This document shows, piece by piece, positions 1,580-21,515 of a stretch of DNA of 64,000 nucleotides. This DNA comes from Mycobacterium marseillense. GTDB lineage: Bacteria > Actinomycetota > Actinomycetes > Mycobacteriales > Mycobacteriaceae. A model generated the notes under the pieces. It worked only from the letters and a program-made list of their open reading frames with translations, had not been told where the DNA came from and searched no databases. Position 1 is the first letter of the stretch. Every line of letters starts with the position of its first letter. The stretch covers positions 1,860,001 to 1,924,000 of the forward strand of contig NZ_AP022584.1 of the NCBI RefSeq assembly GCF_010731675.1. Reading direction: 5' to 3'. Made by a program: the position numbers and the translations under genes.

Positions 1580-1622
1580 TTGACTGGTGCCGCCTTGACT
1601 GCGAAGATAACGTTCGCATAAA
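1580..1622 (+). promoter_or_regulatory. Possible promoter for the M-box transcript
   Basis: Two TTGACT hexamers lie at 1580-1585 and 1595-1600, just before the riboswitch. The second is 16 bases from CATAAA (1617-1622). That start would clip the 5' strand of the riboswitch P1 helix, so the first hexamer with a weak AAGATA at 1604-1609 (18-base spacing) may be the better pair. Transcription start is not known. Confidence 0.3.
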
Positions 1623-1782
1623 CCTCGGTAGGTGAGGCGTCTGCACGGATATAGGCCACTGACCTCGAACGTCGAGAGACGCCCCGGGTCAGGACAGCTC
1701 TTCCCGGCTTAAGGGTTGAGCCCAAGTGGCTTCCGGCTCAACCGGATACGCCGTGTGGTGCCAAAGCTCTGACGAGAGGGGT
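1622..1782 (+). promoter_or_regulatory. M-box (ykoK leader) Mg2+ riboswitch
   Basis: The 5' block reads GGTAGGTGAGGC at 1628-1638, and the 3' block reads GTGCCAAAGCTCTGACGAGA at about 1758-1777. Both are the most conserved stretches of the M-box class, which binds Mg2+ and shuts down expression of Mg2+ uptake genes. Between them the sequence CGTCGAGAGACGCC (about 1670-1683) matches the conserved internal CGTC-GAAA-GACGCC region. CCTC at 1623-1626 can pair with GAGG at 1776-1779 to close P1. M. tuberculosis has one M-box ahead of PE20-PPE31, so finding it ahead of a PE-PPE operon here fits. The 454 bases after it hold a leader ORF and hairpin before the PE gene. Confidence 0.88.
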
Positions 1783-1840
1783 GCCGCGCCCGGCTGAATC
1801 GCCGGGTCGCCTTACCCCGGTGTGCGACTGTTGGCACCCC
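1778..1840 (+). promoter_or_regulatory. Putative M-box expression platform
   Basis: GGGGTGCC (1778-1785) can pair with GGCACCCC (1833-1840). This uses bases 1778-1779 that otherwise close riboswitch helix P1, so the two pairings compete. Inside lies a perfect six-pair hairpin CCCGGC/GCCGGG (1789-1806). There is no U-tract, so if this ends transcription it would more likely act through Rho. Inference from base pairing only. Confidence 0.4.
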
Positions 1841-1873
1841 CGTGTGCCCTGGCCGTGAGGAGGTGAGAGCGAG

Positions 1874-1954
1874 ATGAATCGCGGTGATAGTCCCTATCCG
1901 AGTCCGATGAGCATTTCGTTCGGATCCGGCCCAGGCACCGTTTCCACTATCTGA
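1874..1954 (+). CDS. Short leader ORF (26 aa) between M-box and PE gene
   Basis: ATG 1874 is preceded by a very strong Shine-Dalgarno sequence, GAGGAGGTGAGAG, ten bases upstream. The frame encodes 26 residues, beginning MNRGDSPYPSPM, and stops at TGA 1952-1954. Three prolines sit within residues 7-11. Its position, between a riboswitch and a hairpin that precedes the first structural gene, is that of a regulatory leader peptide. Proline-containing leaders such as MgtL control Mg2+ transporter genes in enterobacteria, which is an analogy and not homology. Coding status is not proven. Confidence 0.5.
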   Translation: MNRGDSPYPSPMSISFGSGPGTVSTI

Positions 1955-1986
1955 ATCGGCTTGCGCCGCTTCGGTTAACACTCGCC

Positions 1987-2007
1987 CGCGTCCGCTTCGT
2001 GGACGCG
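1987..2007 (+). terminator. Hairpin between leader ORF and PE gene, possible attenuator
   Basis: CGCGTCC (1987-1993) and GGACGCG (2001-2007) form a perfect seven-pair stem with a seven-base loop, followed by TGTTGTTGTGG. The tail is U-rich only in part. It lies 33 bases after the leader ORF stop and 71 bases before the PE start, so ribosome position on the leader could influence it. Confidence 0.4.
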
Positions 2008-2077
2008 TGTTGTTGTGGCGTGCCCTGACACGACCACAGCCGCAGCCTTAATCTGCATTCCCTTGAGGAGAAGTCCG

Positions 2078-2377
2078 ATGTCTTTTGTGACCGCACAACC
2101 AGAAATACTGGCGGCAACGGCCAATGATTTGCGCAATATCGGCTTAGGGCTCGCCGCCCAGAACGCGGCCGCATCTACGCCTACGACAGGCGTGATTCCT
2201 GCAGCGGCCGATGAGGTTTCGGCGCTCACCGCGACCCAGTTCGTTGCGCACGCGCAGCTGTATCAAGTGGTGAGCGCACAAGCCGCAGCAGTTTCTGACC
2301 TGTTCGTGCGGACCTTAGCGGCCAGCGCCGTTTCGTACGCCGCCACCGAGGCCCTCAACACGACCGCGGCCGGCTAA
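2078..2377 (+). CDS. PE family protein (99 aa)
   Basis: ATG 2078 follows GAGGAGAAG at a normal distance; the protein is the bare PE domain, beginning [18 protein letters not shown] with Pro8-Glu9. PE proteins form a helical hairpin that pairs with the N-terminus of a PPE protein and leaves the cell through a type VII (ESX) system. The YxxxD/E-type secretion signal is expected near the C-terminus. It is the first structural gene after the M-box and is followed at 14 bp by a PPE gene, so the two probably form one heterodimer. In M. tuberculosis the M-box-controlled pair is PE20/PPE31, linked to growth at low Mg2+; the same role is inferred here. Confidence 0.9.
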
Positions 2378-2391
2378 AGGAAGTGTGTCCA

Positions 2392-3609
2392 ATGACTGTC
2401 ATGATCGATTTCGGCGCGTTGCCGCCGGAAATCAATTCCGCAAGAATGTATTCCGGCGCGGGCTCAGCGCCGATGCTTAGCGCCGCCGCCGCCTGGGACA
2501 CGCTGGCCGCTGAATTGCGTTCGGCGGCAACCTCCTACAGCTCGACGATCTCAGGATTGACCAGCGAAGGCTGGCGCGGCCCGGCATCGATATCGATGGC
2601 GGCCGCCGCAGCACCTCTTGTCGCCTGGATGAACACGACCGGGATGCAGGCTGAACAAACCGCCACCCAGGCCACCGCAGCCGCGGATGCCTATGAGACC
2701 GCGTACTCGATGACGGTGCCCCCACCGGTCATCGCGGCCAATCGTAGCCTTTTGAGCGCGTTGGTCGCGACCAACGTTTTGGGGCAGAACACGCCGGCGA
2801 TCGCGACCACCGAGGCTCACTACGGCGAAATGTGGGCCCAGGACGCTGCCGCAATGTACGGCTACGCCGCCGCTTCGGCGGCCGCCTCGAAGGTGACGCC
2901 ATTCACCGGTCCACAACAGACAACCAATGCGGCGGGGCTGACCGGGCAGGCCGCGGCGGTCAGCCAGGCCACTGCTACCTCGACAGGCACGAGCACGCAG
3001 ACTGCACTGTCACAGCTGACCTCCACGGTACCCACAAAGTTGCAGAGCCTCGCGGCACCCGCGTCGTCTTCGTCGTCGACGTCGGGACTTTCGGAAATCC
3101 TTGGCCAACTGCCTCAGTCTGGGTCTGGGAATCCGCAGCTCGACGACTTCTGGAACCAGTGGGGGCCCAACGCGAACATCTGGAACACCATCTTCTCGTC
3201 CGGGTTCTACACACCCAGTAACACATTGGGTGCCTTCACGAGTTTGCTGGGCGCCGGCGCAGCCGGGGGCGCGGCGGGAAACGCGATCGGAGAAGCTGTC
3301 ACAACCGGCCCCCTCGGAGGCCTATTGGGTCTGGCGAGCCTGGGCTCTGGCGGCGGCGCATCGGCGGCCCTGGGTCAAGCCGCATCAATCGGCCCGTTAT
3401 CGGTGCCCGCGAGCTGGACCGCCCTAGCCCCACCCCCGAGCTCTCTTGCCTCAGGGCTGGGCGGCACGCCCCTCACCGCGGCTCCGGCAGGTGTGATACC
3501 CATGATGCCCGGCATGCCGATGGCGAACACGGCCGGAAGCCACATAGCCAGTGCTCCCAAATACGGGCTCCGGCTCACCGTAATGGCCCGCTCACCCATC
3601 GCCGGATAG
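2392..3609 (+). CDS. PPE family protein, SVP subfamily
   Basis: Start chosen at ATG 2392 because GGAAG lies eight bases upstream; ATG 2401 is also possible. 405 residues. The N-terminal PPE domain (about residues 1-180) contains [20 protein letters not shown] and the conserved [17 protein letters not shown]. The middle is Ser/Thr/Gln-rich and low complexity. The C-terminal part has the GPLSVPASW motif that defines the PPE-SVP subfamily and ends in [15 protein letters not shown], the usual PPE-SVP C-terminus. Partner of the PE protein 14 bp upstream. Placement downstream of an Mg2+ riboswitch suggests an outer-membrane uptake role like that proposed for PPE31; this is an inference. Confidence 0.9.
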
Positions 3610-3724
3610 CAGATACGGGGATCGGCTGCGAGCCTCAGTTCGACGGCCCCAACCGCATAAGCAGTTCGGCCACGATTCACCGCTTATGTGGCACTCGATG
3701 ATTTCTAGATAAGGAGACATTCAG

Positions 3725-4021
3725 ATGACTACGCGTTTTACGACCGACCCGCACGAGATGCGCTCGATGGCAGGGCGTTTCGAAGTGCACGCCCGAACCG
3801 TGGAGGACGAGGCCCGCAAGATCTGGGCGTCCTCGCAAAACATCGCCGGCGCCGGCTGGAGCGGTAGCGCTCAAGCCACCTCCTACGACACCGTGAGCCA
3901 GATGAACACCGCCTTTCGCAATATCGTCACCATGCTGCACGGGGTGCGCGACAACCTGATTCGTGACGCCAGCAACTACGAGGACCAAGAACAGGCCTCT
4001 CAGCAGATCCTGGGCAACTAA
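3725..4021 (+). CDS. WXG100 protein, EsxJ/K/M/P/W type
   Basis: 98 residues from ATG 3725 (AAGGAGACATTCAG upstream). The sequence closely follows the M. tuberculosis QILSS subfamily of Esx proteins: [20 protein letters not shown] at the start and [10 protein letters not shown] at the end. The W45-S-G turn of the WXG100 hairpin and a C-terminal YEDQE secretion-signal-like motif are visible. It is expected to form a 1:1 dimer with the next gene product and to be exported by ESX-5 or a related system. Lies 115 bp after the PPE gene, the common PE-PPE-esx-esx layout. Confidence 0.92.
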
Positions 4022-4049
4022 CCGCTTTGCACCCGTGAGGAGAACACCG

Positions 4050-4334
4050 ATGACGATCAACTACCAGTTCGGCGACGTCGACGCCCACGGTGCGCTGATC
4101 CGCACCCAAGCCGCCACCCTAGAGGCTGAGCATCAGGCCATCATTCGCGATGTGCTTGCCGCCGGCGACTTCTGGGGCGGCGCGGGCTCACTGGCCTGCC
4201 AGGAGTTCATCACCCAATTGGGCCGCAACTTCCAGGTGATCTACGAGCAGGCCAACGCTCACGGCTCCAAAGTACAAACGGCCGGTTCCCACATGGCCAA
4301 CACCGACAGCGCCGTGGGCTCCAGCTGGTCCTAA
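4050..4334 (+). CDS. WXG100 protein, EsxI/L/N/O/V (Mtb9.9) type
   Basis: 94 residues from ATG 4050, with GAGGAGAA eight bases upstream. MTINYQFGDVDAHGALIRTQ and GRNFQVIYEQANAHG are hallmark Mtb9.9-family sequences, and W42-G-G is the helical-hairpin turn. Partner of the preceding Esx protein, 28 bp upstream. The pair is the fourth member of the riboswitch-led operon if no terminator intervenes; I see only a weak GCGGCA/TGCCGC hairpin after the stop. Confidence 0.92.
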   Translation: MTINYQFGDVDAHGALIRTQAATLEAEHQAIIRDVLAAGDFWGGAGSLACQEFITQLGRNFQVIYEQANAHGSKVQTAGSHMANTDSAVGSSWS

Positions 4335-4414
4335 CCCCAAGCGCGGCAGCCGTATTGCCGCTCCCGTGCTACACCACCCACCACTGATTTACACGTTGCG
4401 CCAAGGAGAGATCC

Positions 4415-5017
4415 ATGAACAAACCGGCGACCGAGATCCGACGACCGCTCCGCCTGCTCGGACTGCTGAAGACACCCGGCGGCCACGTTGCCCGCCCTCC
4501 CACGAGGTCGCCGCGTTGCTCGCCCGGATCCGTGCCGACGACGCCGACGACGCGGCCTTCATTTTGCGCCAGTCCCACCCGGCGCCGTGTTCTGGAATTG
4601 ATGCCCGCACCCCAGCGCTCCCACGGTGATCGCCCTTGTTGGGATTCAAACCCGCACAGCGCAGGCCGTTTGATGAACCTCGACATCGTCTCCTGCGAAA
4701 CATGGGCGTCTGCAGCTGCACGTCCTCCACGAGTGCGGGCGGCTGGCCGGCGTGGTCTCAGTGATCGCACTTTGCAATCGAACATTGCGGATGCGGTTGC
4801 GACACTGATGGATTCGAATCCCATCTTGGTGACTCCCGATGCCGATCTGATCGATGCCGCGGTATTGATAGCCGACTACAACTTACACACCATTTCGGTC
4901 GTCGATGACGAGGGTCAGGCGCTGGGGGTGGTGACCGTCGATGCCGTGCTCAGGCCACCATTCCCGACGACTGGCGCTAGCGAGCGCCCGGGCCACGCCT
5001 GGTTCGCGAAGACCTGA
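4415..5017 (+). pseudogene. Decayed MgtE_N/CBS gene (copy 1)
   Basis: A start with AAGGAGAG upstream (ATG 4415) leads into a sequence that matches the intact domains of the second copy (16309-17198) only when the frame is changed several times. HEVAALLARIRADDADDAA is in one frame (from about 4500). RRRVLELMPAPQ and SAGRLMNLDIVSC are in a second. LHVLHECGRLAGVVSVIA is in a third. DSNPILVTPDADLIDAAVLI and LGVVTVDAVL are back in the second. The PRC part of copy 2 has no counterpart. At least four frame disruptions and an internal deletion make a working protein unlikely. It lies 31 bp upstream of the NRAMP-related gene, the same arrangement as copy 2. Confidence 0.8.
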
Positions 5018-5048
5018 CCTCGATGAGCAGCGAAGAAGGAGACTGGCT

Positions 5049-6716
5049 ATGACACTCTTGGACCGCCCCACTTCCGACACAGTGTTGGCGGCGCCGCACG
5101 GCACCGCGGTGCTGGACAGCGCACACGTCGGCGACATCGAAGGTGCGCTGGGCCGAATCGGCCTCGGCGACACCGCCCGTCCGCGTAGCCTGAAAATCCG
5201 CCTAGCCACCATGCTGGCGATCATCGGGCCCGGCTTGATCGTGATGGTCGGCGACAACGACGCCGGAGGCGTCTCGACCTACGTGCAGGCCGGACAGAAC
5301 TACGGCTACAGCCTGCTGTGGGTGCTGGTGTTGTTGATCCCGGTGCTGATTGTTAACCAGGAGATGGTGGTCCGGCTCGGTGCGGTCACCGGGGTCGGAC
5401 ACGCGCGGTTGATCAATGAGCGGTTCGGCCGCGGCTGGGGCTGGTTTTCCGTGGGTGACCTGTTCCTGCTGAACTTTCTGACCCTGGTCACCGAATTCAT
5501 TGGCATCACCCTGGCGGCCGACTACATCGGCATCCCCCGATATGTGGTCGTCCCGCTGGCCGCGATCGCGCTGATCACCATCATGGCCACCGGCAGCTTC
5601 CAGCGCTGGGAACGCGCGATGCTCGCGTTCATCGCGATCACGCTGCTGCAAATCCCAATGTTGTTGATGTCCCATCCAGATGCGGGGCGCGCCGCCAAAT
5701 CGTTTGTCATCCCGGGCATGCGTGGCGGAGTCACCTCGGACGCGGTGCTGTTGATCATCGCGATGGTCGGCACCACGGTGGCCCCGTGGCAGCTGTTCTT
5801 TCAGCAGTCCAACATTGTCGACAAGCGCATCACGCCGCGTTTCATCGGCTACGAGCGCGCCGACACCACACTGGGTGCCTTCGTCGTGGTGATCGGTGCG
5901 GCGGCGTTGATCATGACCGGCGACTGGGCCGCGCGGGCCACCAACAGCCGTGGGCGCTTCGCCGACGCCGGCACGGTTGCGCACCTGCTCGGCCAAATCA
6001 ACACCACCCTCGGGTCGGTGTTCGCGATCGTGTTGCTCGACGCCTCCATCATTGGGGCGGCTGCGGTGACCCTGGCCAGCAGCTATGCCTTCGGGGATGT
6101 ACTCGGGCTCAAGCATTCCCTGCACCGTGGCTTCGGTGACGCCAAGCCATTCTACCTGTCCTACACCGGAATGGTCGTGATCGCCGCAGCGATCGTGCTA
6201 ATCCCCGGGGCGCCGTTGGGGTTGATCACGACCGGCGTGCAAGCGCTGGCCGGGTTGCTGCTGCCCAGCGCGACTGTCTTTTTGGTGCTGTTGTGCAACG
6301 ACCGGGAAGTCTTAGGCCCGTGGGTGAACCGGCCGTGGCTCAACGTAACGTCAGGGCTCATCGTCAGCGTGCTGTTGCTACTCTCGGGCATACTCATGGC
6401 CACGACCGTATTCCCCCGCCTCGACATCGTCTCACTCGCCGCCGACCTCACCGTCGGTATCGCCCTATGCGCCGCAACCGTTTTCGGTGTGCTGCGGTGG
6501 TATGGTCGCCAGCGCCCGAAACAACAATGGCCTGACCAGCCCCCCTTTGACCTGGCCACAGCCCAACGGGCCACCTGGCGAATGCCGCCGTTGACCTCGT
6601 TGAAACCGGTGTCCTGGTCGGCCGGAACTCGGCTAGGCATGCTGGCCTTGCGTGGCTACCTCGTAGTCGGGGCGATTTTGCTCGTGGCCAAAGCCATCCA
6701 ACTCGGTAGCACCTGA
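5049..6716 (+). CDS. NRAMP-related divalent cation transporter (copy 1)
   Basis: Start at ATG 5049, eight bases after AAGGAG; 555 residues with about 11 predicted membrane helices. It belongs to the NRAMP fold. The first helix motif that is DPGN in Mn2+/Fe2+ transporters reads GDNDAGG (in PGLIVMVGDNDAGGVSTY). The helix-6 MPH motif is replaced by TVAPWQLFFQQS, so the soft metal-binding methionine is gone. Loss of that methionine is a feature of NRAMP-related Mg2+ transporters (NRMTs). A conserved soluble N-terminus (AVLDSAHVGDIEGALGRIGL) precedes helix 1 and is shared with copy 2. Its neighbours, a decayed MgtE_N/CBS gene and an upstream M-box operon, support Mg2+ as substrate. Substrate is inferred. 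Confidence 0.85.
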   Translation: MTLLDRPTSDTVLAAPHGTAVLDSAHVGDIEGALGRIGLGDTARPRSLKIRLATMLAIIGPGLIVMVGDNDAGGVSTYVQAGQNYGYSLLWVLVLLIPVLIVNQEMVVRLGAVTGVGHARLINERFGRGWGWFSVGDLFLLNFLTLVTEFIGITLAADYIGIPRYVVVPLAAIALITIMATGSFQRWERAMLAFIAITLLQIPMLLMSHPDAGRAAKSFVIPGMRGGVTSDAVLLIIAMVGTTVAPWQLFFQQSNIVDKRITPRFIGYERADTTLGAFVVVIGAAALIMTGDWAARATNSRGRFADAGTVAHLLGQINTTLGSVFAIVLLDASIIGAAAVTLASSYAFGDVLGLKHSLHRGFGDAKPFYLSYTGMVVIAAAIVLIPGAPLGLITTGVQALAGLLLPSATVFLVLLCNDREVLGPWVNRPWLNVTSGLIVSVLLLLSGILMATTVFPRLDIVSLAADLTVGIALCAATVFGVLRWYGRQRPKQQWPDQPPFDLATAQRATWRMPPLTSLKPVSWSAGTRLGMLALRGYLVVGAILLVAKAIQLGST

Positions 6717-12187: not shown

Positions 12188-12248
12188 TACGGTCGAATGA
12201 GTAGTAGGTGAAATGCGCCCGACAGGGCCGAACACGAGGAGGAATTTG

Positions 12249-12530
12249 ATGTTTCCGCATGCGCTAGCGGCAAAGGCGGCCGCGACGGTGTTCACCGGCT
12301 TGGTGGGCGTGAGCGCTTATGAGTTGTTGCGGAAGGTGGCTGGTGGGGCGCCTGTGCGCCGGGCGACGGTCGCGGCCGCGGAGTTGAGTTTGCGAGGGAC
12401 GCGTCGCGCGGAAGTGGCCGCGGAGTCGGCTCGGCTGAAGGCGGCCGACGTGGTCGCTGAGGCGCGTGAACGCATCGGTGAAGAGGCTTCCCCGCCGGCT
12501 GCGGCCGCGGTCCACGATCACGACCACTGA
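12249..12530 (+). CDS. pacL1: PacL-type metal chaperone (DUF1490)
   Basis: 93 residues from ATG 12249, after GAGGAGGAA. An N-terminal membrane segment (AATVFTGLVGVSAYELLRKV) is followed by an Ala/Glu/Arg-rich helix and the C-terminal metal-binding tail VHDHDH. PacL proteins bind Zn2+ through an Asp/His tail, scaffold and protect the P-type ATPase CtpC in membrane platforms, and are encoded directly upstream of it. Here ctpC begins 11 bp downstream. The symbol is given because the ATPase partner is clearly CtpC. Confidence 0.85.
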   Translation: MFPHALAAKAAATVFTGLVGVSAYELLRKVAGGAPVRRATVAAAELSLRGTRRAEVAAESARLKAADVVAEARERIGEEASPPAAAAVHDHDH

Positions 12531-12540
12531 TCGCTTAACG

Positions 12541-14784
12541 ATGACTGTTGTCGATGACCCCGCCGTAGAAATTCTGTCCGATGCGGCGGGGCGGATGAGA
12601 TTGCATGTTCCGTGGGTTCGTTCGGATTCCCGTCGTGCGGTGGCCGTCGAGGACATGGTGGACAAGCAGACCGGTGTGCGTGCGGTGCACGCCTATCCCC
12701 ACACCGGATCGGTCGTGGTGTGGTATTCACCCAAGCGTTGTGATCGCTCGGCGATCATGGCGGCCATTGCGGCGGCGAAAGACGTTGCGGCTGAGCTTAT
12801 TCCCGCGCGTACGCCGCGCTCGGCTGATGTTCGCAACACTGAGGTGCTGCGCATTGCGGTCGGCGGGGCGGCGCTGGTGTTGTTGGGTGTGCGCCGCTAT
12901 GGTTTCCGACGCCCGCCGCTGCTGGGGCCCAAGGGTCAGCTGGTGGCGACCGGCGCGACGGTGTTCATGGGCTATCCGTTCTTCCGGGGGGCGCTACGTT
13001 CGCTTCGTTCTGGCCGAGCGGGCACCGACACGTTGGTGACGGCGGCCACGGTGGCCAGCATGGTGTTGCGGGAGAACGTGGTCGCGCTGACTGTGTTGTG
13101 GCTGCTCAATATCGGCGAGTACCTGCAGGACCTGACGCTGCGCCGCACCCGCCGGGCCATCGCCGACCTGTTGCGCGGCACCGCGGACACGGCCTGGATC
13201 AGGGCCAATGATGGCAGCGAAGTCCAGGTGCCCATCGATACCTTGCAAATCGGTGACGAGGTCGTCATCCACGATCACGTGGCGATCCCGGTGGACGGCG
13301 AGGTGCTCGACGGGGAAGCGGTGGTCGACCAGTCGGCGATCACGGGCGAAACGTTGCCGGTCAGCATGGTCGTCGGCTCCCGCGTACACGCCGGATCGGT
13401 GGTGATACGCGGACGCCTCGTGGTGCGCGCGACCGCGGTGGGCAGTGAAACCACGATCGGGCGGATCATTTCTCGCGTCGAAGAGGCCCAGCACGATCGG
13501 GCACCGATTCAAACGGTCGGTGAGAATTTCTCCCGCCGGTTTGTTCCGATCTCGTTCATCGTGTCCGCGGCAACTCTACTGCTGACCGGCGACATCCGGC
13601 GCGCGATGACCATGCTGTTGATCGCGTGTCCATGTGCGGTGGGATTGTCGACCCCGACTGCGATCAGCGCCGCGATCGGCAACGGGGCGCGCCGCGGCAT
13701 TCTGATCAAGGGCGGGTCTCACCTCGAACAAGCCGGGCGGGTGAACGCCATCGTGTTCGACAAGACCGGGACGCTCACCGTTGGGCGCCCCGTCGTGACG
13801 AATGTCGTTGCCTTCCAGAAGGATTGGCAGCCCGAAGAGGTCTTGGCCTATGCGGCCAGCTCGGAGATACATTCACGTCACCCGCTGGCCGAGGCGGTGA
13901 TCCGCTCGACCACCGAACGCCATATCACGATCCCGCCGCACGAACAGTGCGAAGTGTTGGTCGGCCTGGGCATGCGCACCTGGGCTGATGGCCGTGTTTT
14001 ATTGCTGGGTAGCCCTTCGCTGCTGCGTGCCGAAAAAGTCCGCGTGTCCAAGAAGGCAACCGAGTGGGTTGAAAAACTGCGCCGCCAAGCCGAGACCCCG
14101 CTGCTGCTTGCCGTCGATGGCAAGCTGATCGGCCTGATCAGCCTGCGCGACGAAATCCGCCCCGAGGCAGCCGACGTGCTGAACAAGTTGCGCAGCAAGG
14201 GCATTGGGCGCATCGTGATGCTCACCGGTGATCATCCTGACACCGCCGAGGTGGTCGCCGGCGAACTCGGCATCGACGAGTGGCGCGCCGAGGTGCTACC
14301 CGAAGACAAGCTTCAGGCGGTGCGCCAACTGCAGGACGAAGGCTTCGTCGTCGCGATGATCGGTGACGGCGTCAATGACGCGCCGGCGCTGGCGACCGCC
14401 GATATCGGGATCGCCATGGGTCTGGCCGGCACCGACGTCGCCGTGGAAACCGCCGATATCGCGCTGGCCAACGACAACCTGCAGCGCCTGCTTGATGTAC
14501 CCGATCTGGGTGCGCGAGCCGTCGCGGTGATCCGGCAGAACTACGGCATGTCCATCGCCGTCAACTCGATCGGTCTGCTCATGGGTGCCGGAGGGGCCCT
14601 GTCGCCGGTGCTGGCCGCGATCCTGCACAACGCATCCTCGGTCGCGGTGGTCACCAACAGCTCTCGACTCATCCGCTACCGCCTGATGAACGGTCAATCC
14701 GCGACCGCGAACGAACACGCGACGGGGGCGCCCGTCGGCACCACCCGTGAGCAAGCCGCGGTGTCGTCCCCGGTCGCCGATTGA
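12541..14784 (+). CDS. ctpC: P1B-type metal-exporting ATPase CtpC
   Basis: 747 residues from ATG 12541. It aligns by eye along its whole length with CtpC (Rv3270), about 30 residues longer mainly at the C-terminus. N-terminal domain (1-100) lacks a CxxC site, as in CtpC. The actuator domain has SAITGE, the transport site is LLIACPCAVGLSTP (CPC), the phosphorylation motif is DKTGTLT and the hinge is GDGVNDAPAL. The HP locus is SRHPLAEAV. CtpC is known as a Zn2+/Mn2+ exporter important for resisting metal poisoning. It forms an operon with pacL, and the inverted repeat at 12160 probably controls both. The CtpC-like NRAMP neighbourhood makes this a metal-homeostasis cluster. Confidence 0.93.
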   Translation: MTVVDDPAVEILSDAAGRMRLHVPWVRSDSRRAVAVEDMVDKQTGVRAVHAYPHTGSVVVWYSPKRCDRSAIMAAIAAAKDVAAELIPARTPRSADVRNTEVLRIAVGGAALVLLGVRRYGFRRPPLLGPKGQLVATGATVFMGYPFFRGALRSLRSGRAGTDTLVTAATVASMVLRENVVALTVLWLLNIGEYLQDLTLRRTRRAIADLLRGTADTAWIRANDGSEVQVPIDTLQIGDEVVIHDHVAIPVDGEVLDGEAVVDQSAITGETLPVSMVVGSRVHAGSVVIRGRLVVRATAVGSETTIGRIISRVEEAQHDRAPIQTVGENFSRRFVPISFIVSAATLLLTGDIRRAMTMLLIACPCAVGLSTPTAISAAIGNGARRGILIKGGSHLEQAGRVNAIVFDKTGTLTVGRPVVTNVVAFQKDWQPEEVLAYAASSEIHSRHPLAEAVIRSTTERHITIPPHEQCEVLVGLGMRTWADGRVLLLGSPSLLRAEKVRVSKKATEWVEKLRRQAETPLLLAVDGKLIGLISLRDEIRPEAADVLNKLRSKGIGRIVMLTGDHPDTAEVVAGELGIDEWRAEVLPEDKLQAVRQLQDEGFVVAMIGDGVNDAPALATADIGIAMGLAGTDVAVETADIALANDNLQRLLDVPDLGARAVAVIRQNYGMSIAVNSIGLLMGAGGALSPVLAAILHNASSVAVVTNSSRLIRYRLMNGQSATANEHATGAPVGTTREQAAVSSPVAD

Positions 14785-15363
14785 TTGCCCCTGCTGTCGC
14801 GTCTCCCCCGCAGCGTCATCCCCAATGGGCGCGCTTCTGGGCTCACGGGCCTTTCATTCGAGTGGGCCGCTTAACGCCTGAGGCCGACGAGCGCCCGGTT
14901 AGAAAGGTGAGCACAAGTGAGTGGACCAGAAACGTCGGCTGAGCAGGTCGGGTCGCACCCGGTTATGCATCTCTCGGAGTTGCTGCATGCGCCGGTGTTG
15001 GCCCGGTCGGGCGAGGCTGTGGGCCGGGTGCAGGACGTGATTGTGCGGCTGCGCGGCGCCGACGAGTATCCGTTGGTGAGTGGGATCGTCGCTGTGGTGG
15101 GGAGGCGGCGGGTGTTCATCGGCAGCCCCTCCATTTCTGAGTACGCCCCAGACCGCGTGGTATTGGCGACACACAAAATCGATCTGCGCGGTTTCGAACG
15201 CCGCGACGGCGAGGTGTTGCTGCGCGCTGATGTGCTGGGACACCGGTTGATCGATGTGGCTGCCGTGGAGTTGGTACGCGCCTATGACGTGGAGCTCGAA
15301 GATATCGGCGTCGGGTGGGTGCTTGCCCGTCTGGATACTCGCCGCCCGGCGCGGTTCTTCGGA

Positions 15364-16029
15364 CTAGGGCGTGTCTGACAAATGCGGTAGCCAGAGGGTG
15401 ATAGCTCTCAGGACAGCTGCGCCGCGGTAGACGAGAGCGAGTTTGTCATAGCGGGTGGCCAGTCCGCGCCATTGCTTGACGACGTTGAAGTTTCGCTCAA
15501 CGACGTTGCGGCCCTTGTAATCCTCGGCGTTGAAGGCCGGCGGCCGGCCGCCACGTGCACCTCGCCGCTTACGGTTAGCGATTTGGTCGGAGGGTTCGGG
15601 AATGACCGCGCCGATGCCACGTCGGCGCAGCCGTGTTCGTGTTGCGCGGCTGGAGTAGGCCTTATCTGCGCGGACGCGATCGGGGCGGGTCCGTGGTCGG
15701 CCACCGCGGCGGTGCACTTTCACGTGTGCGAGCAAATGCTCCAACACCGGTCCGTCATGGGCTTGGCCAGGGCCGACGAGCACCACCAAGGGCCGTCCAC
15801 GACCGTCGACGAGATGATGAATCTTGCTGGTCAACCCACCGCGGGAGCGGCCAATGCCGTGGTCAGGCGGCTCGATGCCCAGATTCGTGTAATTCGACCC
15901 AGCCCCCCGTGTCACGGGTGATGTTCGTAGCGTGCTGATGAGCACGGGCGATCGTGGAATCCACCGCCACCGCCCAGTCGATGAGCCCGGCCGCCTCTGC
16001 GGCGGCCAGCAACCGAGCCAGCACCACAT
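15364..16029 (-). CDS. IS5/IS427-type transposase, second frame (catalytic C-terminal part)
   Basis: This frame carries the DDE nuclease fold: DHGIGRSRGGLTSKIHHLVD, RVRADKAYSS, VIPEPSDQIANRKRRG and RNVVERNFNVVKQWRGLATR with the catalytic E of the YREK-type region. It is reached from the first frame by a shift near the run of six G at 15903-15908. Its stop codon, TAG on the minus strand at 15364-15366, lies in the duplicated target CTAG and not in the IS. Confidence 0.85.
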   Translation of the reverse strand: MWCWLGCWPPQRRPGSSTGRWRWIPRSPVLISTLRTSPVTRGAGSNYTNLGIEPPDHGIGRSRGGLTSKIHHLVDGRGRPLVVLVGPGQAHDGPVLEHLLAHVKVHRRGGRPRTRPDRVRADKAYSSRATRTRLRRRGIGAVIPEPSDQIANRKRRGARGGRPPAFNAEDYKGRNVVERNFNVVKQWRGLATRYDKLALVYRGAAVLRAITLWLPHLSDTP

Positions 16030-16304
16030 CCCAGGTGCCTTCGGCGCTCATCCTTCGATGCCAGGTCCAGATCGTCTGCCACGGTCCGAACACCTCGGGC
16101 ACGTCTCGCCAGGCGATCCCACACCGGTACCGGTAAATAATGCCTTCGACCATCGAGCGAGCATCCTGAAAGGGCCTGCCCCGCTTACCTGTCCGGGCCG
16201 GAAGCAAATCTTCGATCAACGACCACTGAGCATCAGTGAGCAACTGAAACCGCGACATAGCTCAAGCCTCAGGCACAACACCCCAAAACTTTGTCAGACA
16301 CGCC
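15368..16304 (-). mobile_element. IS5-family (IS427 group) insertion sequence, 937 bp
   Basis: Ends are inverted repeats GGCGTGTCTGACAAA (15368-15382) and TTTGTCAGACACGCC (16290-16304), flanked on both sides by CTAG (15364-15367 and 16305-16308). It contains two overlapping transposase frames on the minus strand. The perfect target duplication and the restored host frame show a recent insertion. CTAR targets are typical of the IS427 group. Confidence 0.93.
15863..16258 (-). CDS. IS5/IS427-type transposase, first frame
   Basis: Starts at ATG 16258, 46 bp inside the IS end. It carries the N-terminal DUF4096-type segment of IS427 transposases (LTDAQWSLIEDLLPARTGKR, RYRCGIAWRDVPEVFGPWQT) and the first catalytic Asp in VDSTIARAHQHA. 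Relative to this frame the second one is +1 (or -2), with six consecutive G (15903-15908) as a likely shift site. Confidence 0.88.
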   Translation of the reverse strand: MSRFQLLTDAQWSLIEDLLPARTGKRGRPFQDARSMVEGIIYRYRCGIAWRDVPEVFGPWQTIWTWHRRMSAEGTWDVVLARLLAAAEAAGLIDWAVAVDSTIARAHQHATNITRDTGGWVELHESGHRAA

Positions 16305-17194
16305 CTAGTCAAAAGTCGGGGTGGGCATGCGGCCCGGGATTGGAAGGCATTCGAACCACTGATCGGCCACGCCCGCTCCGGTGCCTCGCGACGTCAGGCA
16401 GGCCGGCTCGGCGGGTTCAAACCCGCCGACATCGCCGATCTTCTCGAAGACGCTGACAAAGCCGAGGGTGGGGAGATCCTCGACCGAGTCCGCAGCGACC
16501 CGGAATTGGAAGCCGACGTGTTCGAAGAACTCGACCCTGACAAGGCCAGCCGATTGCTCAATGACATGGCCGATGACGAGGTCGCCGCACTAATGGGCCG
16601 GATGCGCGCCGACGACGCCGCCGACGCGATCGCAGACCTGCGTCAATCGCGGCGCAGGCGCGTGCTGGAGCTCATGCCGGGCCCGCAGCGCACGAAAGTG
16701 ATCACCCTGATGGGCTTTAACCCCGACAGCGCCGGCGGCCTGATGAATGTCGACTTCGTCTCCTGCGCCGCAAGCACCACCGCGGGCATGGCGCTGGCAC
16801 TGATCGCGGGCGCCACAACGATACAGCCCGAGGCATTGGTCAAGATGCATGTCCTTGATGAAGACAACCGCCTGGCTGGTGTCGTGTCGGTGATCGACCT
16901 GCTGCAAGCCGAACCCGGTCAAACCGTTGAAGCACTGATGGATTGCGACCCAATTCGAATCGGGGCCGAAGCCGATCTGACCGACGTCGCCCTATTGATG
17001 GCCGACTTCAACCTCTACTCCATCCCCGTCGTCGACGGCCAGGACCGCGTGCTCGGGGTTGTCACCGTCGATGACGTGCTAGAAGCCACCATCCCCGAGG
17101 ATTGGCGGCGCCGCGAACCCGCCCCCCGCCCGGTCCGCGAAATCGCCCCACCGTATGACGATCGCGACGCGCCTGCACCGGAGAGTGAGGCGCC

Positions 17195-18871
17195 GTGACC
17201 TCCGGCGAGGAGGCCACCGGCCACGCAGCAGCGACTCACCGATCCGAGTCGCCACCACCGAAGCGCACCGCGGTGCTTGACTCGGCTCACCTCGGTGATA
17301 TTGAGGGCGCCTTTGGGCGCATTAACGTCGGTGAAACCGACCATCCCCGCACGTTCAAGACGCGGCTACTGACGCTGCTGGCCATCGTCGGCCCCGGAAT
17401 CATTGTGATGGTCGGTGATAACGATGCCGGCGGGGTTGCCACCTACACCCAAGCTGGCCAAAACTACGGCTACTCCCTGCTGTGGGTGCTACTCCTGCTC
17501 ATCCCGGTGCTCATCGTCAACCAAGAGATGGTGGTCCGGCTCGGCGCGGTTACCGGTGTCGGACATGCCCGCTTGATCAACGAACGCTTCGGCCGCGGCT
17601 GGGGCTGGTTCTCCGTCGGTGACCTGTTCCTGCTCAACTTCCTCACGATCGTCACCGAGTTCATCGGCATCACTTTGGCCGCCACCTACATCGGTATCTC
17701 CAAATATATTGTCGTTCCGGTCTCAGCGCTCACGCTCATCGCGATCATGGCCAGCGGCAGCTTTCGCCGTTGGGAGCGGGCCATGTTCGTCTTCATTGCC
17801 ATCACTTTGGCGCAGATCCCAATCCTGCTTATGGCGCACCCACAGTGGGCCCAGGCCGCCAAGTCATTTGTGGTGCCAAACATCTCCGGTGGCGTGACCT
17901 CGGATGCGGTGCTTTTGATCATTGCCATCGTCGGCACCACCGTGGCGCCTTGGCAGCTGTTTTTTCAGCAGTCCAACGTCGTCGATAAGCGCATTACGCC
18001 TCGATTTATGGGCTACGAGCGCGCCGACACCGTGTTGGGGGCCTTCATCGTGGTTGCCGGCGCCACCGCACTGGTCATGATCGGCGACTGGGCGGCGCGC
18101 TCCACTGGCACAGCCGGTGGTTTCACCGACGCCGGCGCCATCTCGCATCTGCTGGGCCAACACAATTCGACGCTGGGCTGGTTGTTCGCGATCGTGCTGA
18201 TGGACGCCTCGATCCTCGGCGCCGCCGCAGTGACCCTGGCCACCAGCTACGCCTTTGGCGACGTATTCGGCCTGAAACACTCGCTGCACCGAGGGTTCGC
18301 CGATGCGAAACCTTTCTACCTTTCCTACAGCGCAATGGTGGCGTTTGCGGCGGCGATCGTGCTGATTCCTGGCGCCCCCCTCGGGTTGATCACCACCGCC
18401 GTGCAGGCCCTCGCTGGCTTGCTGTTGCCCAGCGCCAGCGTGTTCCTCCTGCTGCTGTGCAACGACCGGGAAGTATTGGGCCCCTGGGTAAACCGGCCCT
18501 GGCTCAACTGGATTGCCGGCCTAATCGTCGGCGTCCTGCTGCTGCTGTCGGGAATCCTGATGGCGACTACCTTGTTCCCCGGCCTCGACGTGATCGTTGT
18601 CGCCGGCTACCTGGCACTGACATTGGTCATACTCGCCGCAGCCACGGTACCGACACTTCGTTGGATGGGTCGCCGCCAGCCCTCACCACCGGCGGCATCA
18701 AGCCCGGCGCGGCCCCTTGACCGCAATAGCTGGCGAATGCCACCACTGACCTTGTTAGAGCCCGTGACCTGGTCGCCAGGGACCCGTCTAGGCATGATTG
18801 CGCTGCGCGGCTACCTCGTCGTCGGCGCCGTCCTGCTCATCGTCAAGGCTGTCCAGCTCAGCGGCCGATGA
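17195..18871 (+). CDS. NRAMP-related divalent cation transporter (copy 2)
   Basis: 558 residues from GTG 17195, which overlaps the stop of the MgtE_N/CBS gene by four bases, so translation of the two is coupled. It is highly similar to copy 1 through all about 11 helices and in the soluble N-terminus (AVLDSAHLGDIEGAFGRINV). Helix 1 again reads PGIIVMVGDNDAGGVATY, and helix 6 reads TVAPWQLFFQQS in place of the AxMPH motif. These changes remove the methionine used by Mn2+/Fe2+ NRAMPs and agree with an Mg2+-type NRAMP-related transporter. Since the IS lies upstream in the partner gene, coupling and operon transcription are probably disturbed here. Confidence 0.87.
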   Translation: MTSGEEATGHAAATHRSESPPPKRTAVLDSAHLGDIEGAFGRINVGETDHPRTFKTRLLTLLAIVGPGIIVMVGDNDAGGVATYTQAGQNYGYSLLWVLLLLIPVLIVNQEMVVRLGAVTGVGHARLINERFGRGWGWFSVGDLFLLNFLTIVTEFIGITLAATYIGISKYIVVPVSALTLIAIMASGSFRRWERAMFVFIAITLAQIPILLMAHPQWAQAAKSFVVPNISGGVTSDAVLLIIAIVGTTVAPWQLFFQQSNVVDKRITPRFMGYERADTVLGAFIVVAGATALVMIGDWAARSTGTAGGFTDAGAISHLLGQHNSTLGWLFAIVLMDASILGAAAVTLATSYAFGDVFGLKHSLHRGFADAKPFYLSYSAMVAFAAAIVLIPGAPLGLITTAVQALAGLLLPSASVFLLLLCNDREVLGPWVNRPWLNWIAGLIVGVLLLLSGILMATTLFPGLDVIVVAGYLALTLVILAAATVPTLRWMGRRQPSPPAASSPARPLDRNSWRMPPLTLLEPVTWSPGTRLGMIALRGYLVVGAVLLIVKAVQLSGR

Positions 18872-19479: not shown

Positions 19480-19836
19480 GCGTGTCGTTGGATGAGAAGG
19501 CTATCGGCCTTCCGGAGTCTGAAGTTCACGGACCTCACAGTCCAGAAGGAACGGCAAGGACCGTGTGTGACGGTACGACATCGTTGTTTGGTTGCCATGT
19601 GTACGGGTTGAGCGTGTCGAGCGGCGCGCGGCGAGGTCTGGGTGGTGCACGTGGTCACGGCTGGCGAAAGGGCAGCGGCCTGCCCCGGGTGCGGGGTGCT
19701 CCTCCTCGGTCAAAAGTGGGTGATGACCTCGCCGAAGGACATGCCCTACGGGGCAAGATCGCATCCGAACCGCTCCTCGCGGAACTCCCGGTCGTACTTT
19801 TTCAGTTTCTCTGGCGTCGCTACCCCTCATAACTGA
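19480..19836 (+). pseudogene. ISL3-family transposase remnant (N-terminal zinc-finger part)
   Basis: Plus strand gives, in more than one frame, LFGCHVYGLSV and then VVHVVTAGERAAACPGCGVL followed by KDMPYGARSHPNR. This matches the N-terminus of ISL3 transposases, which has a CxxC pair and a PRDLPYG sequence. A frame break near 19620 and the missing catalytic part mark it as a remnant. It overlaps the end of the QcrB-like gene by a few bases. Confidence 0.6.
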
Positions 19837-21515
19837 TGCCTCCGCGGCCTCGGAGGAATCTCGGCTTTCTGGCTGTCGTCTCTAATCGCTTGCCCGTCGC
19901 CTGAACCAGTGATTGTCTGGCGTTGCCGCAGCGCAGTCATCGCGTGCCGTTCACCGGATCGCGCGGCGCGGGCGAGTGCGTCGCTTTCCTCGGCCGGATC
20001 TGGCCGCAGGAAACTGCCCGTGCCGGGGGCGCCGCTGGCGCCGAGCTTGTTCATCCGCTTGGGTACTGCCGCGCCCTGATATTCCAATGGAATTGGGTGA
20101 CCGTCTTCGTCGACGTCTCCTAGCGGTTGATGTATTTCTATGTAGGCGCCGTGCGGAAGGCGATTAATGATGCCGGTCTCGACGCCATGCTGAAGCACCG
20201 CGCGGTCGCTGCGCTGGAGTCCGACGCACCACCGGTAGGTGATGTAGTAAATGATCGGTGGCAGCACCACCATCCCGATGCGACCTATCCAGGTCGTGGC
20301 GTTCAGCGAGACTTCAAACTTGTAGGCCAAGATGTCGTTCATTCCGCTGAAGGTCAGCACCAGGTAGAAGGCGATCGCCATCGCCCCTATGGCGGTGCGC
20401 ACCGGCGCGTCGCGCGGCCGCTGCAGCAGGTTGTGGTGGGCGTTGTCGCCGGTCATCTTGTTCTCGATGAGCGGATAACTCGTCAACAGGACGAATACCA
20501 CTCCCATGAGCAGCGCCACCCAGAACGCCGCGGGCACGGTGTGGCCCCACACGTACAGTTCCCACGCCGGCCAAAGGCGAGCCAGCCCCTCGGTCCACAT
20601 CAAATAGAAATCGGGTTGGGAACCGGCCGACACCTGCGACGGCTTGTAGGGACCGAGATTCCAGATCGGGTTGATCTGCAACAGCCCACCCATCAGACCC
20701 AAGATGGCGACCGTCATCGCGAAAAACGCGCCGGACTTGACCGCGAACACCGGCATGACCCGCACACCCACCACGTTGTTCTCGGTGCGGCCGGGACCGG
20801 GAAACTGGGTGTGTTTCTGAAACCACACCAACGCCACATGCACGCCGATGAGTGCCGCGAAGATCGCCGGGAGAATCAGGACATGGATGGCGTACATGCG
20901 CGAAACGATGATGTCGCCGGGAAAGTCGCCACCGAATAGCGCCCAGTGCAGCCACGTGCCGATTACCGGGACGCTCATCGTGATCGATGACAACGCGATG
21001 CGCAGCCCGGTGCCCGACAGCAGATCATCGGGTAGCGAATAGCCGAAGTAGCCCTCGAACATGGCCAGAATCAGCAGCAGGGCGCCGATCATCCAGTTGG
21101 CTTCCCGGGGCCGCCGAAACGCCCCGGTGAAAAAGACTCGGGCCAGATGCACCATGATCGCCGCGGCGAACATCAACGCCGCCCAATGGTGGACCTGGCG
21201 GATGAACAACCCGCCGCGCACTTCGAAACTGATATCCAGCGTCGACTGGTAGGCCTTCGACATCGCCACGCCGCGCAGCGGTTGATAGACGCCGTTGTAG
21301 GTGACCTCGGTCATCGACGGGTCAAAGAACAGGGTCAGATACACCCCGGTGATCACCAGCACGATGAAGCTGTACAGGGCCACCTCGCCCAGCAGAAACG
21401 ACCAATGGGTGGGGAACACTTTATTGAGCTGACGCCGTAGAGCCGCCGAGGGGTGATACCGCGAATCAAGCGCGCCGCCCTGATCAACGAGCACGTCATC
21501 GAATTTTGGGCTCAT
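19827..21515 (-). CDS. QcrB-like cytochrome b subunit, orphan copy
   Basis: 562 residues, matching mycobacterial QcrB (cytochrome b of the bc1-aa3 supercomplex) along its whole length. Membrane core with heme-ligand histidines in [20 protein letters not shown] and [14 protein letters not shown]. The quinol-site region is [20 protein letters not shown] and the C-terminal extension is [20 protein letters not shown]. The usual partners qcrC and qcrA are not next to it, so this is an extra copy outside the qcrCAB operon. The start codon ATG 21515 has no good ribosome site but overlaps the stop of a small upstream frame (ATGA), suggesting coupling. Whether it joins the supercomplex is unknown. Confidence 0.9.

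What the first reader, a model, noticed from the sequence alone, without database searches (positions are those of the whole stretch)
14917..18871. Channel-less MgtE sensor (PRC-MgtE_N-CBS) coupled to an NRAMP-related transporter
The gene at 14917-17198 (IS removed) encodes a PRC barrel, MgtE_N and two CBS motifs but no MgtE membrane domain, and its stop overlaps the start of an NRAMP-fold gene (GTGA, 17195). In MgtE the MgtE_N/CBS part is the Mg2+ sensor that closes the channel. The NRAMP protein lacks the helix-6 methionine (TVAPWQ in place of the MPH motif), as in Mg2+-type relatives. I infer a two-part Mg2+ uptake system in which a detached MgtE gate controls an NRAMP carrier. The same pairing occurs twice in this window (4415-6716).
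Basis: partly seen in the sequence, partly recalled or inferred. Interest (0 to 1): 0.85.

Follow-up and report, generated by a model that had tools for sequence, protein, structure and literature searches.

The report
Detached magnesium sensor beside NRAMP transporter
This mycobacterial region holds two copies of a magnesium-type NRAMP transporter gene, each next to a broken copy of a separate magnesium-sensor gene; the pairing was noticed in other bacteria in 2014, but the sensor's likely origin from a dead magnesium channel and its place in a riboswitch-controlled uptake operon appear new.

Summary
The pairing is real, conserved and already in print. The gene at 14917-17198 is split by an insertion sequence (15364-16308); its pieces encode PRC-like and MgtE_N-CBS parts, without an MgtE channel domain. 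Its GTGA overlap with the NRAMP gene is real. The second pairing is only a gate remnant beside an intact transporter; an intact pair lies elsewhere in the genome. Both transporters carry the NRMT signature (DxxG-TxxA); the nearest solved structure is the Mg2+ transporter EleNRMT. Shin et al. 2014 reported NrmT genes beside 'MgtE-like fragments' and proposed feedback, so the core idea is not new, and the gated pair they tested looked like a Mn2+ carrier. Added here: (1) 125 of 125 partner-associated gates examined carry a PRC-like domain, 0 of 12 true MgtEs do; (2) 23 longer gates keep a degenerate MgtE channel domain lacking the pore Asp; (3) the same module pairs with DUF1003 in 27 genomes; (4) an Mg2+ riboswitch (M-box) heads an operon in this window, M-box-PE-PPE-Esx-Esx-gate remnant-NRMT, with relatives in other mycobacteria. 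Best reading: Mg2+ importers regulated by a sensor subunit descended from MgtE. Contact, direction of control and cargo are untested.

The parts
1617..1787 (+). M-box Mg2+ riboswitch aptamer (RF00380)
   Evidence: cmscan 146.3 bits, gathering 44
2078..2377 (+). PE protein gene, first large gene after the M-box
   Evidence: Pfam PE 102 bits
2392..3609 (+). PPE (PPE-SVP) protein gene
   Evidence: Pfam PPE 225 bits, PPE-SVP 64 bits
3725..4021 (+). WXG100 (Esx-like) gene 1
   Evidence: Pfam WXG100 64 bits
4050..4334 (+). WXG100 (Esx-like) gene 2
   Evidence: Pfam WXG100 55 bits
4415..5017 (+). decayed remnant of a detached MgtE gate; one CBS domain recognisable, no PRC or MgtE_N match
   Evidence: Pfam CBS 39.7 bits only; tblastn 41% to the gate C-terminal part at 4580-4966
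5049..6716 (+). NRMT-type NRAMP transporter, copy A, intact frame (signature DAGG / TTVA)
   Evidence: Pfam Nramp 263 bits (longer frame from 4941); 76% to copy B; motifs read
12213..12530 (+). DUF1490 protein (PacL-type by recall) before the P-type ATPase; neighbour of pair B
   Evidence: Pfam DUF1490 123 bits
12466..14784 (+). heavy-metal P-type ATPase, neighbour of pair B
   Evidence: TIGR01525 577 bits
14917..15378 (+). gate gene copy B, piece 1 (PRC-like domain), frame ends inside the insertion sequence
   Evidence: PRC 19.5 bits, below cut-off 21.2; 93% to the intact paralogue
15364..16308 (-). IS5-type insertion sequence splitting the gate gene (inverted ends 15364-15384 and 16288-16308)
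16443..17198 (+). gate gene copy B, piece 2 (MgtE_N and two CBS)
   Evidence: Pfam MgtE_N 55 bits, CBS 64 bits for the ORF from 16506; tblastn 98% from 16443
17195..18871 (+). NRMT-type NRAMP transporter, copy B (signature DAGG / TTVA), start overlaps gate stop (GTGA)
   Evidence: Pfam Nramp 264 bits; best PDB match EleNRMT 7qia E 2.2e-59

Best explanation
The NRAMP genes belong to the Mg2+-type NRMT branch. The neighbouring gene is a regulatory subunit, PRC-MgtE_N-CBS, descended from an MgtE whose own channel was lost. It senses cytosolic Mg2+ at the N-CBS interface as in MgtE, docks on NRMT (perhaps by its PRC-like domain or the P..WR tail that stands in the place of the plug helix) and slows uptake when Mg2+ is ample. 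In mycobacteria a second feedback layer, the M-box, can act on the same operon, which may also carry PE/PPE genes (outer-membrane entry). In this strain both gates in the window are broken, leaving copy A under the M-box alone and copy B without a local gate, with one intact pair elsewhere. Shown here: pairing, signature, M-box, operon order, conserved acidic positions, fold, dead-channel forms. Inferred: cargo, contact, inhibition, docking site, descent order, role of PE/PPE.
Against: A. capsulatum NrmT beside such a gene fully rescued a Mn2+ defect but a Mg2+ defect only at low millimolar Mg2+, and adding the fragment did not improve the latter (PMC4072509). EleNRMT carries Mn2+ as well (PMC8806188 abstract). 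Pair B sits beside a heavy-metal P-type ATPase. No fusion among the 120 listed of 4263 hits; no docking signature that tells gated from ungated NRMT. Gates decay while transporters stay intact here and in L053 and L040, though L064 shows the reverse, a split NRMT frame beside a full gate. The gate/M-box complementarity is not significant once the tree is taken into account.
Confidence: 0.6

Rival explanations
1. The transporters carry Mn2+ (or Mn2+ and Mg2+) and the gate is a Mn2+ sensor or a general divalent-ion brake.
For: A. capsulatum precedent (PMC4072509); EleNRMT also transports Mn2+ (PMC8806188); pair B lies behind a DUF1490 gene and a heavy-metal P-type ATPase; several database entries name these proteins manganese transporters.
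Against: Signature DxxG-TxxA; M-box in front of 38 of 38 gateless class II genes and of operon A; M-box-like sequence within 6 kb upstream of 15 gated rows, 14 distinct proteins.
Confidence: 0.2
2. The gate is a chaperone, scaffold or assembly factor for NRMT, not a Mg2+-dependent inhibitor.
For: Shin et al. offered a chaperone role as an alternative; the ATP pocket of MgtE is not kept (Arg187 0 of 89, Phe227 0 of 89); CBS modules have many roles.
Against: Acidic N-CBS positions invariant; the dead-channel forms keep the plug-helix Glu-Asp 23 of 23, as expected of a gate.
Confidence: 0.12
3. Only co-regulation: gate and transporter share an operon but act on different things, and the gate's real target is another membrane protein such as DUF1003.
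For: The same module type pairs with DUF1003 in 27 of 198 genomes.
Against: Different gate genes serve the two partners in the same genome, and nine genomes hold an unlinked long gate plus an unlinked NRMT, so co-occurrence outlasts linkage there (the nine are partly related).
Confidence: 0.08

Closest known systems
NrmT/NRMT (Nramp-related Mg2+ transporter) with MgtE-like fragment, Shin et al. 2014, PMC4072509
   Same: NRMT-type transporter beside a gene like the MgtE cytosolic domain; M-box in some; feedback proposed there
   Different: Actinobacterial branch; a search of that text found no 'PRC' or 'CBS', and the passages I saw do not mention dead-channel forms, DUF1003 or PE/PPE operons; in this window the gates are broken
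EleNRMT (PDB 7qia), PMC8806188
   Same: Best PDB match of the window transporter; same NDAGG and GTTxAPW motifs
   Different: About a third identical; window proteins have N- and C-terminal extensions; gates beside 91-96% relatives of EleNRMT end in one membrane helix
MgtE Mg2+ channel (2yvy, 5x9g)
   Same: MgtE_N-CBS fold and acidic positions
   Different: PRC-like domain added, channel absent or degenerate, ATP pocket not kept, P..WR tail instead of the plug helix
M. tuberculosis pe20 and 'Mn2+-type' M-boxes, PMC12810186 (section 5 and passages read)
   Same: M-box in front of pe-ppe genes, or of genes called manganese transporters
   Different: Here one operon joins M-box, PE/PPE/Esx, gate and NRMT; the NRMTs behind M-boxes that I checked for the motif mostly carry the Mg2+-type signature

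Membership tests
NRMT branch of SLC11/NRAMP | DxxG in helix 1 and TxxA/T in helix 6 (PMC8806188) | tested here: met
   DAGG and TTVA in both window copies
NRMT branch of SLC11/NRAMP | closer to NRMT than to Mn2+/Fe2+ NRAMP | tested here: met
   EleNRMT E 2.2e-59; next PDB match E 1.2e-20
NRMT branch of SLC11/NRAMP | transports Mg2+ without proton coupling | not testable with these tools
   needs transport assays
MntH / classical NRAMP | DxxN and A/CxxM metal site | tested here: not met
MgtE Mg2+ channel (gate protein) | MgtE_N and CBS pair | tested here: met
   intact relative L004 and its fold; in the window only in piece 2
MgtE Mg2+ channel (gate protein) | five-helix channel domain with pore Asp | tested here: not met
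   no channel domain in the window pieces or in intact relative L004; PF01769 has no match in the whole genome
PRC-barrel | PF05239 at gathering score | tested here: inconclusive
   window piece 19.5 bits, below 21.2; intact relatives 22.9 (L004) and 40 (L091) bits
M-box riboswitch RF00380 | covariance-model match over gathering score | tested here: met
   146.3 bits, full length

The most novel reading that the evidence does not exclude
PRC-MgtE proteins are a general class of Mg2+-sensing regulatory subunits that arose when an MgtE channel died and its gate was kept for another membrane protein: NRMT carriers in several phyla, DUF1003 (an unassigned, possibly Mg2+-related membrane protein) in Actinomycetota. 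In mycobacteria one such unit sits in an M-box-controlled operon with PE/PPE and Esx genes, giving a two-membrane Mg2+ uptake system; the 'manganese transporters' behind mycobacterial M-boxes are Mg2+ importers.
Probability: 0.45. Interest if true: 0.75.

Novelty: new variant of a known kind. Interest (0 to 1): 0.55.

Why it matters
It would show how an ion-channel gate can be detached and reused for unrelated membrane proteins, with surviving intermediates (dead channel, one-helix anchor, soluble gate). It would reassign many genes now named manganese transporters to Mg2+ uptake, give DUF1003 a first lead, and offer an inner-membrane partner for PE/PPE-mediated Mg2+ entry in mycobacteria. All of it can be tested with harmless actinobacterial pairs.

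Tried and rejected
Natural gate-NRMT fusion: the 1014-aa frame in Nocardia L033 looked like one, but gate and NRMT are in different frames and the database protein of that strain has 565 aa; my notebook entry 8 called it a fusion and entry 9 corrects that. In one search all 120 listed of 4263 hits have 557-625 aa.

'M-box or gate, never both' as a rule: gate+ with M-box 6 of 30, gateless with M-box 41 of 41 decidable places (two contig-end places dropped; the IS-split copy counted as gated). But the tree-aware test gives 4 independent pairs and no significance, and in that set 15 rows (14 distinct proteins) have both. Kept only as a tendency.

A docking signature in NRMT: the N-terminal AVLDxAHxGDIxGA motif is conserved in both 83 gated and 17 ungated sequences. 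Rejected.

Translational coupling as universal: an NRMT start codon overlaps the gate stop by 4 nt in 35 of 71 pairs only.

Limits of the counts: I kept the 134 listed MgtE_N rows down to E 6.9e-12 and dropped the weaker ones; the lists were cut short by the tool. The PRC-like profile was built from 49 of the 85 NRMT gates it was then run on. Some loci are near-duplicates of each other. In one search the row for window copy A was translated in the wrong frame and reads empty; its motifs were read. In one search the PE query was in a wrong frame; one search repeats it correctly. No Foldseek search of the gate model was obtained, and its PRC-like part was not covered by the rows.
Full report
What is there. 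The window comes from a Mycobacterium; among the nearest named database proteins many are from M. intracellulare. Pair B: gate piece 1 at 14917-15378 (PRC-like, 19.5 bits, below Pfam's cut-off), an IS5-type element with inverted ends at 15364-15384 and 16288-16308, gate piece 2 ending at 17198 (MgtE_N 55 bits, CBS 64 bits), then an NRAMP gene 17195-18871 (264 bits) whose GTG overlaps the gate's TGA. Pair A: an intact NRAMP at 5049-6716 behind a remnant (4415-5017) in which only one CBS domain is recognised. The genome holds an intact pair elsewhere (L085, gate 446 aa, NRAMP 559 aa, 4-nt overlap), a fourth NRMT without gate (L099) and no match to the MgtE channel domain (PF01769).

The pairing. 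In 198 Actinomycetota genomes searched with the transporter (60 of 198 at E 1e-20), MgtE_N (109 of 198), DUF1003 (55 of 198) and the MgtE channel domain (113 of 198), the 134 strong listed MgtE_N places split into 56 true MgtE, 37 beside an NRAMP-type gene, 27 beside DUF1003 and 14 neither. Of the 37, three have the gate downstream and one lies on the other strand. Of the 14, nine are long frames in nine genomes that each hold an unlinked NRMT at 33-36% identity.

The transporter. Ramanadane et al. (PMC8806188; passages and section 5 read) give DxxN-A/CxxM for Mn2+/Fe2+ NRAMPs and DxxG-TxxA/T for NRMTs. The window proteins read DAGG and TTVA. In one search the other NRMT rows fit too, except L013 and the second copies in L047, L057 and L058 (DxxA); L093 (DPSG-TTIS) and L094 (DPGN-ATVM), at 26% identity, are outside. 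The best PDB match is EleNRMT, E 2.2e-59, against 1.2e-20 for the next.

The riboswitch. An M-box scores 146.3 bits at window 1617-1787. Behind it on the same strand lie PE 2078-2377, PPE 2392-3609, two WXG100 genes 3725-4021 and 4050-4334, the gate remnant and NRMT copy A. By cmscan M-boxes also lie in L028, L040, L053, L097-L099 and L101-L103, that is in 10 of the 44 sources scanned, the window included; pair B and the intact pair L085 have none nearby. In 118 Mycobacterium genomes (joined) NRMTs at 73% identity or more (class I) have a gate in 29 of 34 places (two of the other five are cut by contig ends); class II (52-59%) in 1 of 39. The 38 gateless class II genes each have an M-box 348-1295 nt upstream (27, 11 more, computed); of the 29 gated class I places 6 have one within 7 kb upstream. 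Operon forms seen: M-box-PE-PPE-PPE-Esx-Esx-gate-NRMT (L122), M-box-PE-PPE-Esx-Esx-gate-NRMT (L120), M-box-PE-PPE-PPE-gate-NRMT (L121), the same kind without a gate (L116) or with a remnant (window, L053, L040/L117), and M-box-gate-NRMT without PE/PPE (L119, L123, L124). A tree-aware test does not support strict exclusion of gate and M-box. The M-box is the strongest argument for Mg2+ as cargo. A 2026 study (PMC12810186; section 5 and passages) names a 'Mn2+-type' class of mycobacterial M-boxes after manganese-transporter-type genes behind them. If those are the class II genes found here, which I did not check gene by gene, the name rests on a family label that the binding site contradicts.

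Origin. The 23 gates of 597-666 aa (15 beside an NRMT, 8 unlinked in genomes that hold one) end in a membrane part that Pfam does not call MgtE in the two scanned (L091, L160) but that aligns to 12 true MgtEs with probability 99.7 and 98.6 on the membrane part alone; ten column-shuffled controls stay at or below 0.7, and NRMT itself scores 0.3. The conserved Asp of the last helix is present in 12 of 12 true MgtEs and in none of the 23; the GGN motif is lost, the plug-helix Glu-Asp kept 23 of 23. That this Asp is the pore residue is recalled. This reads as a series: channel, dead channel plus NRMT, anchored gate plus NRMT, soluble gate plus NRMT or DUF1003. The order in time is inferred.

What is known. 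Shin et al. 2014 (PMC4072509; abstract and passages) reported that most NrmT group members lie beside a gene like the MgtE cytosolic domain, speculated about feedback regulation or chaperoning, rescued a Mg2+-transport defect with two C. acetobutylicum proteins without the partner, and concluded that the A. capsulatum protein is likely a manganese transporter. The core of the finding is therefore known. For the added parts, no paper in the held library has PRC-barrel with MgtE or DUF1003 with MgtE; two mention DUF1003 (listing); searches listed nothing on a PE/PPE-NRMT operon that I recognised from titles and abstract starts. The library lacks most subscription papers.

Verdict. Observation partly confirmed, interpretation partly supported and partly already published. 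The window itself shows loss of the gate at both loci with the transporters kept. Interest lies in the wider class: PRC-MgtE subunits from a dead channel, a second partner family, and the riboswitch operon.

Noticed in passing
L084:5874-7720 (own genome, minus strand): A second PRC-MgtE_N-CBS gene (435 aa) overlaps a DUF1003 gene; the same pairing in 27 of 198 Actinomycetota genomes. DUF1003 has no known function; the M. tuberculosis counterparts are, by recall, Rv1232c/Rv1231c.
   Followed up: partly
window 1617-6716: M-box-controlled PE-PPE-Esx-Esx-gate remnant-NRMT operon, seen in several arrangements in other mycobacteria.
   Followed up: yes
window 12213-18871 and L085:187-9963: DUF1490, P-type ATPase, gate and NRMT are duplicated at about 93-98% protein identity; only the other copy has an intact gate.
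   Followed up: partly
L047, L057, L058 (Streptomycetaceae): Second NRMT copies with DxxA instead of DxxG, each 323-337 nt behind an M-box-like sequence; no gate in L047 and L057, undecidable in L058.
   Followed up: no
window 1874-1954: A short frame between M-box and PE gene, with Pro at position 7, may match the conserved upstream ORF described for the M. tuberculosis pe20 M-box (PMC12810186); read by eye.
   Followed up: no
window 19827-21515 (-): A cytochrome b gene downstream of pair B on the other strand (Pfam).
   Followed up: no
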